From: Anaeromyxobacter sp. Fw109-5
GTDB taxonomy: Bacteria; Myxococcota; Myxococcia; Myxococcales; Anaeromyxobacteraceae
Assembly: GCF_000017505.1 (NCBI RefSeq)
Contig: NC_009675.1
Span: 3,171,001-3,235,000, forward strand
Direction: 5' to 3'
Length of the DNA stretch: 64,000 nucleotides
Shown: piece by piece, positions 5,828-13,589 of the stretch
How the letters are laid out: every line of letters begins with the position of its first letter
Numbering within the stretch: position 1 is the stretch's first letter
The notes under the pieces: model-generated
Databases searched by the model: none
What the model was told of the DNA's origin: nothing
What the model saw: the letters and a program-made list of their open reading frames with translations, nothing else
Made by a program: the position numbers and the translations under genes

Positions 5828-6475
5828 TCAGGGCTTCACGAGGCCGCGGGCGACCGCGAGGAGCGCCGCCTCGGCCTTCGTGGAGACGTCCATCTTCTCG
5901 TAGATCCGCTTCACGTACGTCTGCACGGTCCCCTCGGCGATCCCGAGCGCCTGCGCCACGTCCGCGTAGGTGTGGCCGTGCACGAGCAGCTGCAGCACCT
6001 CGAGCTCGCGCTTCGAGAGCGCCGGGCCGTCCTTCGCCTTCTGGTCGGGCGGGTCGCCGCGCAGCTCGGAGAGGAGCACCTTCGCGGCGCGCGGGCTGAT
6101 GGGGGCGGCGTCGCCGCTGAGCACGTCCTCCACGGCGCGGGTCAGCTCGGCGGCGTGGAACGGCTTCAGGATGTAGCCGGAGGCGCCGGCGCGCATGGCC
6201 GCGAGGACGCGCGCGGGGATGTCCACCGCGGTCAGGGCGATGCAGGCCGTCTTGGGGAGCTCGTGCCGGATGGTGGCGATGACGTCCTCGCCGCTCATCT
6301 TGGGCAGCCCGAGGTCCACGAGCGCCACGTCCGGACGCTCCCGGCGGGCGAGCGTCACCCCCTCCTCCCCGCTGGCCGCGGTGCCGCACACCTCGAAGCC
6401 GTGCGAGGTGAGGACCTGCGCGATGAGCCGGGAGACCGCCTCGTCGTCCTCCACCGCGATTGCCCGGATAGCCAT
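5828..6475 (-). CDS. NarL/FixJ-family response regulator
   Basis: Two-domain transcription regulator of 215 residues. The receiver domain (about 3-120) has the acidic pair E9/D10, the phospho-acceptor D54 in VDLGLP, and a Lys in LKPF. The C-terminal LuxR-type helix-turn-helix (about 145-210) has LSKRELEVLQLL and GTVQTYVKRIYEKM. The start at 6475 gives the natural MAIRAIAVEDDE and has a GGGGGA site just upstream; an earlier in-frame codon at 6526 has no such site. No histidine kinase is adjacent, so the input signal is unknown. Confidence 0.92.
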   Translation of the reverse strand: MAIRAIAVEDDEAVSRLIAQVLTSHGFEVCGTAASGEEGVTLARRERPDVALVDLGLPKMSGEDVIATIRHELPKTACIALTAVDIPARVLAAMRAGASGYILKPFHAAELTRAVEDVLSGDAAPISPRAAKVLLSELRGDPPDQKAKDGPALSKRELEVLQLLVHGHTYADVAQALGIAEGTVQTYVKRIYEKMDVSTKAEAALLAVARGLVKP

Positions 6476-6623
6476 GTTCCCCCAAGTCCGAAGTGGAGGC
6501 ACATCCAGCCTCCGCAAGCGGTCCATTCAGTAGCAGCCCGCGCGGTGGGGGGTCAAGAAACCCACCCCCCCTCCGAACCGGGCGCGCGAGCCGACCGCCG
6601 CCCACCCGTCCGCACACGGAAGT

Positions 6624-6664
6624 ACCTGACACCAAATGGAAATCTCGGGAGAGCTGTGTCAGGT
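6624..6664. repeat. REP-like inverted repeat, 9-bp arms
   Basis: ACCTGACAC (6624-6632) and GTGTCAGGT (6656-6664) form perfect 9-bp arms around a 23-base, unusually A/T-rich centre. It lies just upstream of the cysteine-rich lipoprotein gene. It could be a leader hairpin, an operator or an interspersed repeat. Confidence 0.45.
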
Positions 6665-6692
6665 TGCTCGCCTGGTCGCACAGGAGGCGTTC

Positions 6693-8948
6693 ATGCGAAG
6701 CGGACACGCTCGGCTCGGGCTGCTCGTCGCTGCCCTTTCCTCATTCTTCCTCGCCTGCAGCTCCGGGGGCGGCGGAAAAGATGATCCGGCGTGCACGCTC
6801 GCCGGCCTCGGGCAGGCGTGCGCAGCGCCGTCCGAGTGCTGCTCGGGCGCTTGCTCGGCCGGCATCTGCGTGCCGGACGGCTACTGTGGCGGCGAGGGCG
6901 CCGCGTGCGACGTCTCCGGGGACTGCTGCGACTCTCCCGCGGCGCTGCTCTGCAGCAGCAACGGGGTGTGCGTCGATCCTGGTGCCTGTCTCCCCGACCC
7001 AGGCGCGGCGTGCACCGCCGACGCCGACTGCTGCAGCGGGGCGTGCAACGGCGGCCACTGCGGAGAGCCTCAGGCCCCGCAGTGCAGCCTGCAGAACGAG
7101 GCGTGCACCGCCAACGACCAGTGCTGCTCCAAGACCTGCGCCTCCGGCAAGTGCACCGACTCCGGCGCCTGCACCGTGGAGGGCAGCTCGTGCGCCGCCG
7201 ACCTCGAGTGCTGCTCGAAGAACTGCCTCGGCGAGACCGCCACGGCGCGCGGCACCTGTGACCCCCGCACCTGCATCCAGGCCGGCGATCCCGCGACCCA
7301 GGCCGCGCTGTGCTGCTCGAAGACGCTCGCGGGCGGCGTCTGCCAGCCGCTCGGCTCCGACGGCACCAAGTACGCGTGCACGACGCTGGGTGAATCCTGC
7401 GGCTCGAGCGACGCCTGCTGCTCGCGCAACTGCCAGGGGGGCACCTGCGTCCCCGCCTCCTACTGCAACGCGCCTGGCGACATCTGCCTGCGCCCGCAGG
7501 ACTGCTGCTCCGGGCTCTGCACCGCCGACGGCGACGGCTCCCCCGGTCGCTGCAAGGCGCCGGACGGCGGCTGCACGCAGGACGGCGTGCCGTGCACGAA
7601 CGACTCGAACTGCTGCACCCGCAAGTGCGTGGACCTCGGCAGCGGCACCAAGGTCTGCCAGCCGGCGGGCGGCTGCCGGATGACGGGCTCGTTCTGCGAC
7701 AGCACCGACGCGTGCTGCGGCGGCACGAACGAGGCGTCTCCGGGGACGAAGGAGAGCACCTACGGCGTGTTCTGCGACGGCCCGTCCGCCAGCGACACGG
7801 CGCCCGAGTTCGACCCGAGCTCGAAGAACGATCGCACCTGCTCGAACGGGCAGAGCTGCAACCCGCCGGGCAACATCTGCGGCGCGTTCGGCGACAACGC
7901 CTCCCAGAACTGCTGCGTCCCCGGCGACTTCAACGGCAGCGGCAAGATCGTCTGCAAGCTCGACACGAACAAGATCCCCCGCTGCTTCGGTTCCGGGCCC
8001 GGCGGCGGTACCGGCACCAAGTGCCCCACCGGCTACGACTGGTCGAAGCCCGAGTGCTGCAAGCCCATCGGCGAGGTCTGCCAGATCCGCGAGCAGTGCT
8101 GCGACCTCGCGCCGTGCGTGCCCGACGGCGAGGGCGTGCTCCGCTGCGGCGGCGGGGCCGGCGGTCCGGCCTGCAGCCCGCGCGGCACCCCGTGCACGGG
8201 GACCTCGGACACGAGCTGCTGCGAGGGCACGACGTGCAAGCTCATCGCCGAGGCGGGCTACTTCTGCGCCGACTCGCAGGGCGGCGCCGGCGACTGCGTG
8301 ACGAACGGCGGCGCGTGCACCGGCCCCGGCCAGTGCTGCGCCGGCGCCTGTGACCAGGGCACCTGCCGCGTGTGCCAGGCCGAGGCCGCGAGCTGCACCG
8401 TGGACGCCGACTGCTGCAGCGGGCTCTCCTGCGACATCGAGCCCGGCGCCACCGCCGGCGCCTGCAAGGCGCCGACCTCCGGGCCGACCTGCTCCGAGTC
8501 CGGCCAGGCGTGCACGGCGACCTCGCCCTGCTGCAACGTGAACGAGGAGTGCGTCGAGGGCACCTGCGCCCCGCCGCCTCCGCTCTGCGGTGGGCTGACG
8601 CAGAGCTGCCAGACCCAGCCGTGCTGCGAGGGGCTCACCTGCGATTCGACCACGAAGGTGTGCGGCGAGCTCGCGTGCGCCGCCACCGGCACCTCGTGCA
8701 CCACGCAGAACCCGCTCTGCTGCGAGTCGGGGGCCTCCTGTCGCGCGGCGGGGAACCCGTCGCAGGAATGCACGGACGGCGCGAGCTGCGCCTGCGTGAA
8801 CCTGTCCGTCTGCGCCGAGCCCGCGGCCCCCTGCGCTCCGACGCAGACGTGCTGCGACGTGAGGCAGTACTGCGCGGAGAGCTCCTCGGTCCAGCCGTGC
8901 ACCGGGAGCAGCGCGAGCTGCGTCTGCAAGTCGCAGTCGGCGGGCTAG
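6693..8948 (+). CDS. lipoprotein of about 19 tandem cysteine-knot-like modules
   Basis: The 751-residue secreted protein starts at ATG 6693, preceded by AGGAGG. An earlier ATG at 6636 would spoil the signal peptide. Residues 1-22 look like a type II signal (hydrophobic stretch ending FLAC), with a Ser/Gly linker. Then, from about residue 34 to the end, there are some 19 modules with spacing C-x6-C-x5-CC-x3-C-x4-C, for example modules 1, 3, 4, 7 and 14; others have longer last loops. This six-Cys order with a central CC pair is that of inhibitor cystine knot peptides. I know no assigned function; surface adhesion, binding or a protease-resistant coat are possible. It is monocistronic by spacing. 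Confidence 0.85.
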   Translation: MRSGHARLGLLVAALSSFFLACSSGGGGKDDPACTLAGLGQACAAPSECCSGACSAGICVPDGYCGGEGAACDVSGDCCDSPAALLCSSNGVCVDPGACLPDPGAACTADADCCSGACNGGHCGEPQAPQCSLQNEACTANDQCCSKTCASGKCTDSGACTVEGSSCAADLECCSKNCLGETATARGTCDPRTCIQAGDPATQAALCCSKTLAGGVCQPLGSDGTKYACTTLGESCGSSDACCSRNCQGGTCVPASYCNAPGDICLRPQDCCSGLCTADGDGSPGRCKAPDGGCTQDGVPCTNDSNCCTRKCVDLGSGTKVCQPAGGCRMTGSFCDSTDACCGGTNEASPGTKESTYGVFCDGPSASDTAPEFDPSSKNDRTCSNGQSCNPPGNICGAFGDNASQNCCVPGDFNGSGKIVCKLDTNKIPRCFGSGPGGGTGTKCPTGYDWSKPECCKPIGEVCQIREQCCDLAPCVPDGEGVLRCGGGAGGPACSPRGTPCTGTSDTSCCEGTTCKLIAEAGYFCADSQGGAGDCVTNGGACTGPGQCCAGACDQGTCRVCQAEAASCTVDADCCSGLSCDIEPGATAGACKAPTSGPTCSESGQACTATSPCCNVNEECVEGTCAPPPPLCGGLTQSCQTQPCCEGLTCDSTTKVCGELACAATGTSCTTQNPLCCESGASCRAAGNPSQECTDGASCACVNLSVCAEPAAPCAPTQTCCDVRQYCAESSSVQPCTGSSASCVCKSQSAG

Positions 8949-9331: not shown

Positions 9332-10033
9332 CTACTCCTTCCTCTCGCCGCCGGCGGACGCCGTCGGCGCGCGGCCGTTGCCGCCGTGGTTGAAAGAGCG
9401 CGGGTGGACCTGCGCGCCGCCGTGGCAGTCGACGCAGCTGGCGTCGCCGGCGCGGAGCTCCTCGATCATCCCGCCGTGCTCCTCGCGCGCGAGCCAGCTC
9501 GGCGCGGTGGTCGAGTGGCAGCGGGTGCAGCTCCCGTTCTTGAACGGCTTGTACAGGTGGATGCGGGGCCCACCCTCTCCGTACTCCCCCGAGTCCGCGT
9601 ACGCGGTGATGTAGTAGTAGAGGTGCTTGAGCCCGTTCACCTTCGTGGTCATCGCGCCGAAGAGCTGGTAGTCGGCGTGGCACGTGTAGCAGCTCTCACC
9701 GCCGAAGCTGGAGTTCCGGCTGTGGATCGCGGCGAGGCTGTTCGACTTCGGGTCCGCCGCGTCCTCGGTGTAGGGCAGCATGACGTGGCAGGAGCTGCAG
9801 AACTCCCGCTTCAGCGTGTACTCGAAGCCCGCCACGTTCCCGGTGAGCGCGACGCCGATGGGCATCACGCCGAGCCCGAACAGCAGCATGACCTTCGTGA
9901 TGCGCCCGAGCGGCGGGCGCTTCACCAGGTACCAGACGATGATGACGGCCGAGATCGCGGCCGCGACGACCGCCGTGACCTTGAGCAGCTGCTCGAGCGA
10001 GTGAATGTCTTGCACGGGATGCCTTGCTAGCAT
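9332..10033 (-). CDS. NapC/NirT-type tetrahaem cytochrome c
   Basis: Membrane-anchored quinol dehydrogenase-like cytochrome that would pass electrons from the quinone pool to periplasmic reductases. The 233 residues have two hydrophobic segments (about 15-36 and 45-65), then four CxxCH sites: CSSCH, CYTCH, CTRCH and CVDCH. The C-terminus ends in a Gly/Arg-rich tail. The start is uncertain: ATG at 10033 or a GTG 15 bases further in, which has AAGG upstream. No terminal reductase is adjacent, so the partner is unknown. It is divergent from the tRNA gene. Confidence 0.87.
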   Translation of the reverse strand: MLARHPVQDIHSLEQLLKVTAVVAAAISAVIIVWYLVKRPPLGRITKVMLLFGLGVMPIGVALTGNVAGFEYTLKREFCSSCHVMLPYTEDAADPKSNSLAAIHSRNSSFGGESCYTCHADYQLFGAMTTKVNGLKHLYYYITAYADSGEYGEGGPRIHLYKPFKNGSCTRCHSTTAPSWLAREEHGGMIEELRAGDASCVDCHGGAQVHPRSFNHGGNGRAPTASAGGERKE

Positions 10034-10194: not shown

Positions 10195-10271
10195 GCGCGG
10201 TTAGCTCAGCTGGATAGAGCGTCGGCCTCCGGAGCCGAAGGCCACAGGTTCGAATCCTGTACCGCGCGCCA
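10195..10271 (+). tRNA. tRNA-Arg (anticodon CCG)
   Basis: A complete 77-base cloverleaf. The 7-bp acceptor stem pairs 10195-10201 with 10261-10267. The D arm is GCTC...GAGC, the anticodon stem is TCGGC/GCCGA with loop CTCCGGA (anticodon CCG), and the T arm contains GGTTCGAATCC. G is the discriminator base, and CCA is encoded at 10269-10271. It reads CGG, which is frequent in this GC-rich DNA. Confidence 0.97.
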
Positions 10272-10417: not shown

Positions 10418-12766
10418 TCAGGCCACGGCGGCCTCACGCTGCTGCCGGGCGTGCGCGTACCAGCCCCAGCCGACGAAGGCGGCCTCGGCGAGCGCCACCA
10501 GGATCATCCACTTCACCACCGGCGAGTCGCCCATGCCGTAGGAGTGGAGGCCCGTACCGAGCACGTAGTTCACGCCCAGGTACGTCATGAGGATGGTCTG
10601 GAAGGCCACGATCGACAGGGCCGCCACGCCGAACTGGCCGATGAGCTTGTCGAACCGGCCGTGGACGATCGCCATGTACGCGAGGAACGCGACGAGCGAC
10701 CAGACCTCCTTCGGATCCCAGCCCCAGTACCGGCCCCACGAGGACGCCGCCCAGATGGACCCGGTGAGGATGCCCGCGATGAGGAGGATGTTGCCGACCA
10801 GCATGTACCAGTAGTTCAGGTCGGCCATGCGGTTGGTCAGGTCCGTCCGGCGCGGCGCGAACATCGTGAAGCCGATCTGCATGTGCGCGATCACGACGCC
10901 GAGCGCGAGGACCGAGTAGCCGACCATGATGATCGGCACGTGGATCGCGAGCCAGGGCGTGCCCGAGAGCACGGGCGGCATGGGGTGGATGAACCGGTCG
11001 ATGGGCAGGAGGTCCGTGAGCGCCATGGTGAGCGCCGCCATCGCGTTCGCGTTCAGGACGACGAGGCGGTTGCGCAGCACCGGGAGGGCCACCACCGCGA
11101 AGAGGCCGACGCCCCACGCGAGGAAGAGCAGCGACTCGTACATGTTCGACGCCGGGATCCGGCCGGCGACGGCCCAGCGCATCGCGATGCCCCAGCTCAT
11201 CACCCCGAATCCGCCGAGGAGGCCTGCGAAGGCGAGGACGTCGAGGAGCCTCGACCTGCGGCTCCAGGCCACGAGGGACAGGACGAGGGCGCCGAGGAGC
11301 ACGATCCAGGCGACGCGCGTCGCGCGCACCTTCTTGTAGAGGATCTCGCGGTCGATGGCGGCGGGGCTCGGCCAGCCCTCGAGCCGCGGGCCGGTGGAGA
11401 GCGCGACGAGATCATCGACGCTGCCCATCGGCTGAGGGACGCCCCAGCGCGCCCGCGGCTGACCGGCCACGGGGATGGCGCGGAGCTTCTCCCGCTCCAG
11501 GAAGCCCTGCATCCAGACCAGCCGGCCCTCGAGCTTCTCCGCCTCGCTGAGGACGCCGGTCCGCGGGCGATCCTGCGCCGCCGCCTGCCGCGCCTGCTGC
11601 ATCAGCCCGAGCACCCGCTGGCTCGAGACCAGCTGCGAGAACGACGCGTACTTCGTGCCGCTGGGGAGCCCGACCGCGACCGCGAGCTCGGGGCTGCCGA
11701 GCTCGACCAGCGGCGTGTTGGAGGCGCGCATCGGGTCGAAGAGCCACTGCGCGACGGTGACGACCGGATCTTCGCCGTTCCAGGAGTACTTCCCCGTCAC
11801 GTTCCAGACCGCCTCGCGGGCGAGCGTGTCGAGCGGCATGGAGCGGCCGTCGTGCTGCACCGGCAGCCGGCGCATCGCGTCCACCTTCGCCCAGCCGTCC
11901 AGGGCCGCCGGAGCCTGCGCGGACGCGACGCCCGCGAACAGCGCCAGCGCCACCGCCGCGGCGGCCTTGCCCGCCCGGCCCGCGGGGCGAGGCCCGCCGG
12001 CCTCGCCGCCGTCCAGCATGCGCTCGAGCTCGGCGCGCTTGCGCGCCTCGACCATGCGCGTGCCGAGCACCACGATCATGCCCAGCACGAGGAACGTGTA
12101 GCCCACGAACACGATCGTCTGCCCGGGGTCCTTGGAGACGGAGAGGATCGTCGCCTCGCGGCGGATCTCGTTGGTCTGCGGGTCGCGGTCCTGCTGGTAG
12201 CTCGACTGGAACAGGCTGTACCCGCGGTAGTGCAGCGGGTGGTTCATGTAGATCTCGGTCGCGAACGTCTCGCCCGTCTCGCCGTCGGTGACCTGGACGC
12301 GGCTGCGGAACTGCGACGGCCGCATCGTGCCCGGGTAGTTCTCCACCTCGAAGTCGTCGAGCTTCACCGTGAACGGGAGCTTGTGAGGCGCGCCGGGCTG
12401 CCCGGCCTCGTCGAACACGGCGATCTCGCCGCCGCTGTTCCCTTCCCAGAGGCCGAGCTGCCCCTCGGTCTTGAGGAAGTACGTGAGCCCCGCCCCGATG
12501 AAGATGACGATCATCGAGGCGTGGGTGAGGACGTAGCCGATGCGGTTCTTGCCCCACGGCGCGAGGGACAGGATCGACGCGGTGACGTTCACCGCGAAGA
12601 GCCCCTGCAGCGCGAGGAACCACCAGGCGTAGTACACGGTCTGCTGAGCCACGGGCGCGCCCCTGGACGACTCGATGATCGTCCCCGCCGCGAGCCCGAC
12701 GAGCAGCAGCACGAGCAGGATCACGGCGAGCTTCAGGGAAGCGAGCTGGTTGAGGAGCCTCTTCAT
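10418..12766 (-). CDS. ccsBA: ResB-CcsA fusion, cytochrome c synthetase (system II)
   Basis: Exports haem and joins it to CxxCH motifs of cytochromes c outside the membrane. The 782-residue protein combines an N-terminal ResB-like part (TM helices near 10-35 and 55-75, a large periplasmic loop, another TM near 205-225) with a C-terminal CcsA part of about eight helices. The haem-binding WWD-type segment WGRYWGWDPKEVW is present. The start MKRLLNQLAS at 12766 has GGAGG eight bases upstream; the longer open frame is Arg-rich and unlikely. The many multihaem cytochromes in the window need such an enzyme. Single-chain CcsBA proteins are known in epsilon- and deltaproteobacteria. Confidence 0.92.
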   Translation of the reverse strand: MKRLLNQLASLKLAVILLVLLLVGLAAGTIIESSRGAPVAQQTVYYAWWFLALQGLFAVNVTASILSLAPWGKNRIGYVLTHASMIVIFIGAGLTYFLKTEGQLGLWEGNSGGEIAVFDEAGQPGAPHKLPFTVKLDDFEVENYPGTMRPSQFRSRVQVTDGETGETFATEIYMNHPLHYRGYSLFQSSYQQDRDPQTNEIRREATILSVSKDPGQTIVFVGYTFLVLGMIVVLGTRMVEARKRAELERMLDGGEAGGPRPAGRAGKAAAAVALALFAGVASAQAPAALDGWAKVDAMRRLPVQHDGRSMPLDTLAREAVWNVTGKYSWNGEDPVVTVAQWLFDPMRASNTPLVELGSPELAVAVGLPSGTKYASFSQLVSSQRVLGLMQQARQAAAQDRPRTGVLSEAEKLEGRLVWMQGFLEREKLRAIPVAGQPRARWGVPQPMGSVDDLVALSTGPRLEGWPSPAAIDREILYKKVRATRVAWIVLLGALVLSLVAWSRRSRLLDVLAFAGLLGGFGVMSWGIAMRWAVAGRIPASNMYESLLFLAWGVGLFAVVALPVLRNRLVVLNANAMAALTMALTDLLPIDRFIHPMPPVLSGTPWLAIHVPIIMVGYSVLALGVVIAHMQIGFTMFAPRRTDLTNRMADLNYWYMLVGNILLIAGILTGSIWAASSWGRYWGWDPKEVWSLVAFLAYMAIVHGRFDKLIGQFGVAALSIVAFQTILMTYLGVNYVLGTGLHSYGMGDSPVVKWMILVALAEAAFVGWGWYAHARQQREAAVA

Positions 12767-13589
12767 CGACGCAAACCTCCGAACGATCCGGCGACGCGCC
12801 GGACCTCCCGCCGTGGGCGGGCACCCGTGGACGGCACCCCTGGAGCGGGGAGCCGAGGACGTCCGCTTGCGCGAGCCGCGGGGTCCGCAGCGCGCACTTG
12901 CCATCTTCGGGCCACCCGCAGAACGTCGCGTTCAGCGTGAATAATCCGGGCAGGAATCGCCCGGAGAGCGTTCGCTCGCTGCGGCGAGCCGTCGCGAGCC
13001 CTGCGCCGCGAACGCGAGGCCTCGCTCGGGATCTCGCGGTCTTGCGTGAGATCAGCCCTGGGAGCCCCCAGGACGGCCGAGCAGAGCTGGCGCGCGCCCG
13101 GAGGCGCTTCCGGGGCTCCTCCGCCGAACCCGCCGGCTGCGCTGATGCGCTGCGTCGGCGGGTTTCCGAGGGCCCAGCGCACGATCTGCGCGGCCACACC
13201 CGCCGTTCGCCCTCGGCGCGCCGGAAGCGCCGCTCGAGAGCGCGGCCCCCCTGCCCTCCCACGCGGCGGGAGCGAAGGGAGGGAGGACTCCGGCAGCGCG
13301 GGAGGACAGGAGGCCGGCACGCGGGAGCAGCACGGCCCGGAGGCGGAGCCGCTCGCGCGCCCGGGTAAGGGAGACCGCCCGCGAGGCCGTCGCGCTGAGG
13401 TGCGCGCGGCCCGCAGGATCACGGCGTCCGGTACCGCGGGGTTCCCGTCTAGCTTGGGGATCGCGGACGAGGTCCGCCACCGGCACGACGCGGACCGCGT
13501 CGCTGGTGGCCGGGGAGCTCGTCGCGTGCTGCGGGTGGGGGGGGCGGCGCGTGCGCCGGATGCCGGCGCAGCGCCGCCCGCCACGATGA
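12767..13589. other. 823-bp intergenic region, no supported gene
   Basis: Several frames stay open here, as expected at this GC content, but none has a family signature, a ribosome site or a plausible protein composition. It contains a stem-loop of AACCCGCCG and CGGCGGGTT near 13127-13167. It separates the start of ccsBA from the end of the NfnAB fusion, both on the minus strand, so the ccsBA promoter should lie at its left end. An untranslated RNA cannot be excluded. Confidence 0.5.

What the first reader, a model, noticed from the sequence alone, without database searches (positions are those of the whole stretch)
6693..8948. Lipoprotein with about 19 tandem cystine-knot-like modules
Seen: modules with the six-Cys order C-C-CC-C-C, often with spacing 6-5-0-3-4, repeated over some 715 residues behind a lipoprotein signal; some modules carry longer last loops or an extra pair. 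Known: this order is the hallmark of inhibitor cystine knots (conotoxins, spider toxins, knottins). Inference: a long surface fibre or coat of stable knots, perhaps for binding or defence. Long tandem arrays of knots in bacteria are not something I know as described.
Basis: partly seen in the sequence, partly recalled or inferred. Interest (0 to 1): 0.75.

Follow-up and report, generated by a model that had tools for sequence, protein, structure and literature searches.

The report
Lipoprotein chain of 19 cystine knots
A soil bacterium (most likely Anaeromyxobacter) encodes a membrane-anchored protein built almost wholly of 19 tiny disulfide knots in a row, of the kind known from spider and cone-snail toxins; relatives occur in about four in ten sampled genomes of its phylum, with no description found and an unknown job.

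Summary
Window 6693-8948 (+) encodes a 751-aa lipoprotein with 119 cysteines. Every one can be assigned: C22 is the lipid-bearing Cys, 19 modules hold 112, and three extra pairs hold six. Twelve strict C-x6-C-x5-CC stretches occur against 0.07 expected. The knot reading holds up in four indirect ways. (1) Module profiles retrieve from the PDB almost only inhibitor cystine knots (ICKs). (2) Homologues hit seven ICK-type families in Pfam. (3) A three-module AlphaFold model (pLDDT 83) superposes on ICK peptides, with weak E-values. (4) In 94 proteins, degenerate modules lose cysteines only as pair 1+4 or pair 2+5, as knot connectivity predicts. No disulfide was observed directly. The gene is not an orphan: homologues occur in 80 of 195 Myxococcota genomes, mostly single copy, with a conserved six-module core and variable numbers of modules on both sides (about 14 in Myxococcaceae, 19-25 near Anaeromyxobacter, 33 in one metagenome-assembled genome). 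Function is inferred only: most likely a protease-resistant, membrane-tethered multivalent binding array. A toxin polyprotein or a metal store fit poorly. I found no description of such bacterial arrays in the papers I could search.

The parts
6693..8948 (+). CDS, 751 aa lipoprotein with 19 tandem six-Cys (ICK-type) modules
   Evidence: orthologues
6680..6686 (+). ribosome-binding site (AGGAGG region) upstream of ATG 6693; about 60 bp of the surrounding leader nearly identical in three congeners
6693..6758 (+). lipoprotein signal, MRSGHARLGLLVAALSSFFLA|C22 (acylated Cys), Ser at +2
   Evidence: lipobox found automatically in 67 of 90 homologues
6759..6791 (+). short Gly/Ser-rich linker (longer low-complexity linker in Myxococcaceae homologues)
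6792..6869 (+). module 1 (Cys spacing 8-5-0-3-4)
6885..6971 (+). module 2 (6-5-0-7-5)
6987..7061 (+). module 3 (7-5-0-3-4)
7083..7154 (+). module 4 (6-5-0-3-4)
7170..7259 (+). module 5 (6-5-0-3-10)
7272..7343 (+). module 6, degenerate: Cys 2 and Cys 5 lost together
7377..7448 (+). module 7, first module of the conserved central core (6-5-0-3-4)
7464..7553 (+). module 8 (6-5-0-3-10), core
7572..7658 (+). module 9 (6-5-0-3-9), core; its counterpart has lost Cys 1+4 together in L040, L047 and L061
7674..7841 (+). module 10 (6-5-0-18-21), core
7857..7985 (+). module 11 (6-10-0-12-9), core, most conserved non-Cys residues (GNICG, ASQNCC, CKxDxNGxxRC)
8022..8057 (+). extra Cys pair C444/C455 in conserved CPTGYDxxxPxC insert between modules 11 and 12
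8058..8147 (+). module 12 (6-5-0-4-9), core, CQFxDQCC motif in homologues
8172..8267 (+). module 13 (6-7-0-4-9)
8295..8366 (+). module 14 (6-5-0-3-4)
8373..8465 (+). module 15 (6-5-0-4-10)
8490..8567 (+). module 16 (6-5-0-5-4)
8586..8663 (+). module 17 (6-4-0-4-6)
8676..8795 (+). module 18 (6-6-0-5-9) with extra pair C699/C701
8811..8945 (+). module 19 (6-5-0-5-8) with extra pair C743/C745 and C-terminus

Best explanation
The gene makes an exported lipoprotein whose mature chain is a string of 19 small ICK (knottin) domains held to the membrane by a lipid at C22. Disulfides are formed outside the cytoplasm, probably by the genome's VKOR-type enzymes. The outer modules (1-6, 13-19), which conserve little beyond Cys, act as a stable spacer whose length varies between species; the conserved core (modules 7-12) carries the specific function. 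I think the most likely role is a protease-resistant, multivalent binding tether at the outer membrane: knottin loops bind an extracellular partner such as a polysaccharide, a protease or the surface of another cell, and repetition gives reach and avidity. Shown directly: gene anatomy, repeat count, purifying selection, homologues across the phylum, the conserved core, VKOR without DsbB. Supported indirectly: the knot fold and 1-4/2-5/3-6 pairing. Inferred: outer-membrane and surface location, tether shape, binding role. My confidence is about 0.88 for the ICK array and about 0.4 for the surface-binding role; the figure given is for the whole statement.
For: ICK fold: the 15-module profile finds 32 PDB sequences at E<=1, nearly all knottins, best omega-atracotoxin-Hv1a at 0.0011; the three-module profile finds single and double ICK toxins and Dickkopf-4. 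Homologues hit Conotoxin_I2 (12 of 17, best 5e-10), Toxin_12 (11 of 17), UPF0506, Toxin_29, Omega-toxin, Toxin_21 and Toxin_18 in Pfam. AlphaFold of modules 7-9: pLDDT 82.8. Foldseek's leading matches are ICK peptides and colipase (hairpinless Hv1a mutant 25 residues at 0.8 A, target TM 0.84; nemertide 0.7 A; SOTI-III 1.6-1.8 A), though E is no better than 0.22; VIA-align lists mostly ICK peptides at Z 2.2-3.3. Spacing: 1155 of 1184 modules in 94 proteins lie within a published ICK range (range from PMC6889267). Paired loss: every degenerate four-Cys module of module-like layout between intact modules lacks Cys 1+4 or Cys 2+5, in about 8 separate cases. Family: 80 of 195 Myxococcota genomes, 8 of 9 in the genus, more than 50 invariant or nearly invariant Cys columns in 66 aligned homologues, core conservation and variable module numbers. 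Disulfide machinery: VKOR found twice, DsbB not found.
Against: No ligand, expression or localisation data. The full-length AlphaFold model is poor (pLDDT 52.6, six sequences), so overall shape is unknown. Model coordinates were not readable, so S-S distances were not measured. Foldseek E-values are weak, as expected for 25-residue folds. The window protein falls below Pfam cut-offs, and a shared Cys pattern can arise by convergence. The degenerate-module cases were counted by eye and are few.
Confidence: 0.5

Rival explanations
1. A purely structural spacer or coat: the knots are stiff, protease-proof beads with no binding function of their own, like a stalk or a surface layer of the cell.
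For: Module number varies between species on both sides of the core, and the outer modules conserve little beyond Cys. TraA Cys-rich repeats in Myxococcus were proposed to be a rigid stalk (PMC3325183).
Against: There is no head domain for a stalk to carry: the array is the whole protein. The core keeps many non-Cys residues (8 of 23, 11 of 29 and 8 of 24 columns at 80% or more in the counterparts of modules 9, 11 and 12), more than a mere spacer needs.
Confidence: 0.25
2. A polyprotein that is cut into free knottin peptides acting as antimicrobial or anti-predator toxins.
For: Modules resemble venom ICK peptides in profile searches; linkers are mostly short and separate the modules cleanly.
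Against: Only one dibasic site (RK) in the mature chain, 38 K/R against 76 D/E. Conserved lipid anchor. No partner gene conserved beside it in both Myxococcus and Anaeromyxobacter neighbourhoods.
Confidence: 0.07
3. A metal-binding or redox-buffer protein (metallothionein-like thiolate store, or an aid to electron transfer; a multihaem NapC/NirT-type cytochrome gene lies nearby at 9332-10033).
For: Very high Cys content; neighbouring cytochrome and cytochrome assembly genes; Anaeromyxobacter is a metal reducer (general knowledge).
Against: Exported lipoprotein with VKOR present; Cys spacing is that of ICKs; CxC occurs only in the extra pairs near the C-terminus and there is no CxxC array; paired Cys loss; neighbours differ in Myxococcus.
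Confidence: 0.06
4. A related disulfide-rich fold of the Dickkopf/colipase type with another pairing, rather than true ICK.
For: Colipase appears in Foldseek and Dickkopf-4 in the profile search; Dickkopf_N in one homologue at E 0.017.
Against: Single six-Cys units match single ICK peptides end to end, and pair losses fit 1-4 and 2-5.
Confidence: 0.07

Closest known systems
Inhibitor cystine knot (knottin) peptides, e.g. omega-atracotoxin-Hv1a, conotoxins, nemertide alpha-1, SOTI-III (a plant trypsin inhibitor)
   Same: Six-Cys order, spacing, predicted fold, inferred pairing
   Different: Those are single secreted eukaryotic peptides; here 19 units form one bacterial lipoprotein
Double-ICK toxins (DkTx, Hi1a, remipede Xt3a) and the SCREP concept (PMC6262176)
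   Same: Tandem ICK units in one chain; Xt3a is the best PDB hit of the three-module profile
   Different: Two domains against 19, venom against membrane anchor; the SCREP survey found bacterial entries, but ICK was not among its 20 commonest folds and its main text names no Myxococcota
Myxococcus TraA Cys-rich repeats (TIGR04201, PMC3325183)
   Same: Cys-rich tandem repeats in an exported myxobacterial surface protein, proposed as a stalk
   Different: TraA has a PA14 domain and MYXO-CTERM, and its repeats have three invariant Cys; no TIGR04201 match in this family
Dickkopf N-terminal / colipase domains
   Same: Disulfide-rich fold with a similar Cys order; weak hits
   Different: Single units here match single ICK peptides; only one of 17 homologues hits Dickkopf_N

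Membership tests
Inhibitor cystine knot (knottin) fold | Six Cys in order with published ICK spacing | tested here: met
   18 complete modules in the window, of which modules 1 and 10 exceed the quoted range slightly; 1155 of 1184 family modules within the range quoted in PMC6889267
Inhibitor cystine knot (knottin) fold | Disulfides 1-4, 2-5, 3-6 observed | not testable with these tools
   Model coordinates not readable; no biochemical data
Inhibitor cystine knot (knottin) fold | Evolutionary proxy: bonded Cys are lost together | tested here: met
   Only pairs 1+4 and 2+5 lost in module-like remnants, about 8 separate cases counted by eye; pair 3+6 never seen lost, so inferred by elimination
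Inhibitor cystine knot (knottin) fold | Small beta fold superposing on solved ICKs | tested here: met
   AlphaFold pLDDT 82.8; best superpositions 0.7-1.8 A over 25-35 residues, but Foldseek E >= 0.22 and Z 2-3.3
Any one Pfam ICK toxin family (Toxin_12, Conotoxin_I2) | Score over the curated cut-off | tested here: not met
   Window protein 14.9 bits against 21 for Toxin_12 and 9.5 against 27 for Conotoxin_I2; homologues reach E 5e-10 for Conotoxin_I2, but their bit scores were not shown
TraA-type Cys-rich repeat (TIGR04201) | Match to the NCBIfam model | tested here: not met
   No NCBIfam match for the window protein; among 17 members only one weak unrelated hit
Bacterial lipoprotein | Signal peptide with lipobox ending in Cys | tested here: met
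   FFLA|C in the window; lipobox recognised in 67 of 90 homologues, several of the rest being truncated or missed by the script
Bacterial lipoprotein | Lipid modification and outer-membrane location | not testable with these tools
   Ser at +2 fits outer-membrane sorting by the E. coli rule (general knowledge); myxobacterial rules uncertain
SCREP (secreted Cys-rich repeat protein) | Exported Cys-rich tandem repeat | tested here: met

The most novel reading that the evidence does not exclude
Myxococcota possess a widespread, undescribed class of membrane-anchored poly-knottins whose conserved core knots bind a specific extracellular partner: an independent bacterial use of the venom-type fold at up to about 30 units per chain.
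Probability: 0.4. Interest if true: 0.8.

Novelty: new variant of a known kind. Interest (0 to 1): 0.6.

Why it matters
Cystine knots are known mostly as small eukaryotic peptides; one PDB-wide prediction scan found only 3 positive chains among 80,664 bacterial ones (PMC4491269). A conserved bacterial lipoprotein made of a dozen to thirty knots would add a large natural set of knot loops, ask how an exported chain with about 59 disulfides folds correctly with VKOR and no DsbB, and offer a gene whose knockout in Myxococcus is directly testable.

Tried and rejected
PHROGs, NCBIfam and a single-sequence PDB search gave nothing for the window protein. No plasmid record matches. A first automatic scan for paired Cys loss was confounded by other four-Cys repeats and by parsing, and showed other pair types too; it was replaced by the parse, read by eye. 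hmmsearch local alignment could not show modules lacking end Cys. Gene calling by GC frame plot picked antisense frames over the array because TGC codons distort position 2, so neighbourhood calls are rough. Neighbourhoods give no partner conserved across families. Of 151 genomes sampled from the phylum of locus L042 (titled Chloroflexi) only that genome itself matched the three-module profile; no other phylum was sampled this way. The full-length fold is of low confidence and was not used. Literature searches found no description of these arrays; the library is open-access only.

Full report
Setting. The window is G000:C1:3171001-3235000 of a single 5,277,990-base contig; the window has about 73% GC.

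The gene. An ATG at 6693, with GGAGG just upstream, opens a 751-aa frame to 8948. An in-frame ATG at 6636 exists, but the ribosome-binding site and the signal peptide favour 6693. About 60 bp of leader is nearly identical in two congeners. GC at position 3 is 0.95. The protein starts with a lipoprotein signal ending FFLA|C22.

Counting. There are 119 Cys. Strict C-x6-C-x5-CC occurs 12 times against 0.07 in shuffles. Full assignment gives 19 modules: 18 with six Cys and module 6 with four. Adding C22 and three extra pairs (C444/C455, C699/C701, C743/C745) accounts for every Cys. The pairing of these extra Cys with each other is assumed.

Family. The protein has a match in 8 of 9 genomes of the genus; the one without is 66% complete. 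With a Myxococcus-type homologue as query, 80 of 195 Myxococcota genomes match at 1e-8, most with one gene. In 66 aligned homologues more than 50 Cys columns are invariant or nearly so. Modules 7-12 form a core with conserved non-Cys residues, highest in the counterparts of modules 9, 11 and 12. Modules on both sides of it vary in number: 6 CC units before the GGCRM module in most homologues, 8-10 in Anaeromyxobacter relatives and 17 in L040. dN/dS of 0.2-0.7 with Cys almost unchanged shows purifying selection.

Is it a cystine knot? Sequence: the module profile against the PDB returns 32 sequences at E<=1, almost all ICK peptides; a three-module profile returns single and double ICK toxins and Dickkopf-4. 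Among 17 homologues, Pfam hits are ICK-type families plus Dickkopf_N, although the window protein alone is under the cut-offs. Structure: AlphaFold of modules 7-9 has pLDDT 83, and Foldseek's leading matches are ICK peptides and colipase, with good superposition but weak E-values. Evolution: in 1184 parsed modules of 94 proteins the first loop is six residues in 1168, and 97.6% fit a published ICK range. Shuffled proteins parsed the same way give about 78 modules.

Paired cysteine loss. I read by eye all leftover groups of three or more Cys that lie between intact modules. Those of module layout lack either Cys 1+4 (L040, L047, L061, L056, the pair L155/L156, and the repeated four-Cys units of L042) or Cys 2+5 (the window with L004 and L006, L155/L156, L053). 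No other pair type was seen. The remaining four-Cys groups are a C-rich insert after module 11 and units of L063, which I judged not to be degenerate modules. Counting about eight separate cases, chance membership in the three knot pairs would be (3/15)^8 = 2.6e-6; this assumes independence and equal chances, and the choice of cases was mine, so it is a guide only. Pair 3+6 is inferred by elimination. An earlier automatic scan without this care gave a noisy picture with other pair types.

Disulfide making. The genome has two VKOR matches and no DsbB match.

Context. The gene lies divergent to a LuxR-type response regulator (5828-6526, -). Downstream on the other strand are a NapC/NirT-type multihaem cytochrome (9332-10033) and a fused cytochrome c assembly gene (10418-12904). 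The response regulator and cytochrome also flank the gene in two congeners, but in Myxococcus the neighbours are different (gene calls there are rough). So context does not tell the function.

Function. Inferred. A tethered multivalent binder explains the anchor, the conserved core and the variable flanks best. A bare spacer, a cleaved toxin polyprotein and a metal store fit less well, for the reasons given under rivals.

Novelty. Tandem ICKs are known as pairs in venoms, and Cys-rich repeat proteins in bacteria have been catalogued in general (PMC6262176). I found no description of long knot arrays in bacteria in the open-access library, which does not prove there is none.

Noticed in passing
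G000:C1:4054685-4055251 (L002/L003/L030), outside the window: A second lipoprotein of the same genome carries a few of the Cys modules at its N-terminus followed by PKD/Ig-like domains; similar genes in congeners (L014, L018).
   Followed up: partly
L042 (genome titled Chloroflexi), ORF of 983 aa: Alternating six-Cys and four-Cys units (the latter lacking Cys 1+4), the four-Cys unit seen eleven times; no lipobox recognised.
   Followed up: partly
L037 and L038, ORFs of about 1200 aa: Long exported proteins with an acidic low-complexity linker and a different Cys-rich repeat before the six-Cys modules.
   Followed up: no
window 6620-6692: Leader region nearly identical in two congeners, with conserved GGGTCAAGAAACCC further upstream (about 6550); possible regulatory element shared with the divergent response regulator gene.
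   Followed up: no
L040, ORF of 1136 aa: 33 CC units with nearly identical neighbouring repeats, suggesting recent tandem duplication.
   Followed up: no
window 10195-10271 (+): tRNA-Arg (ccg) gene between the cytochrome and cytochrome-assembly genes.
   Followed up: no
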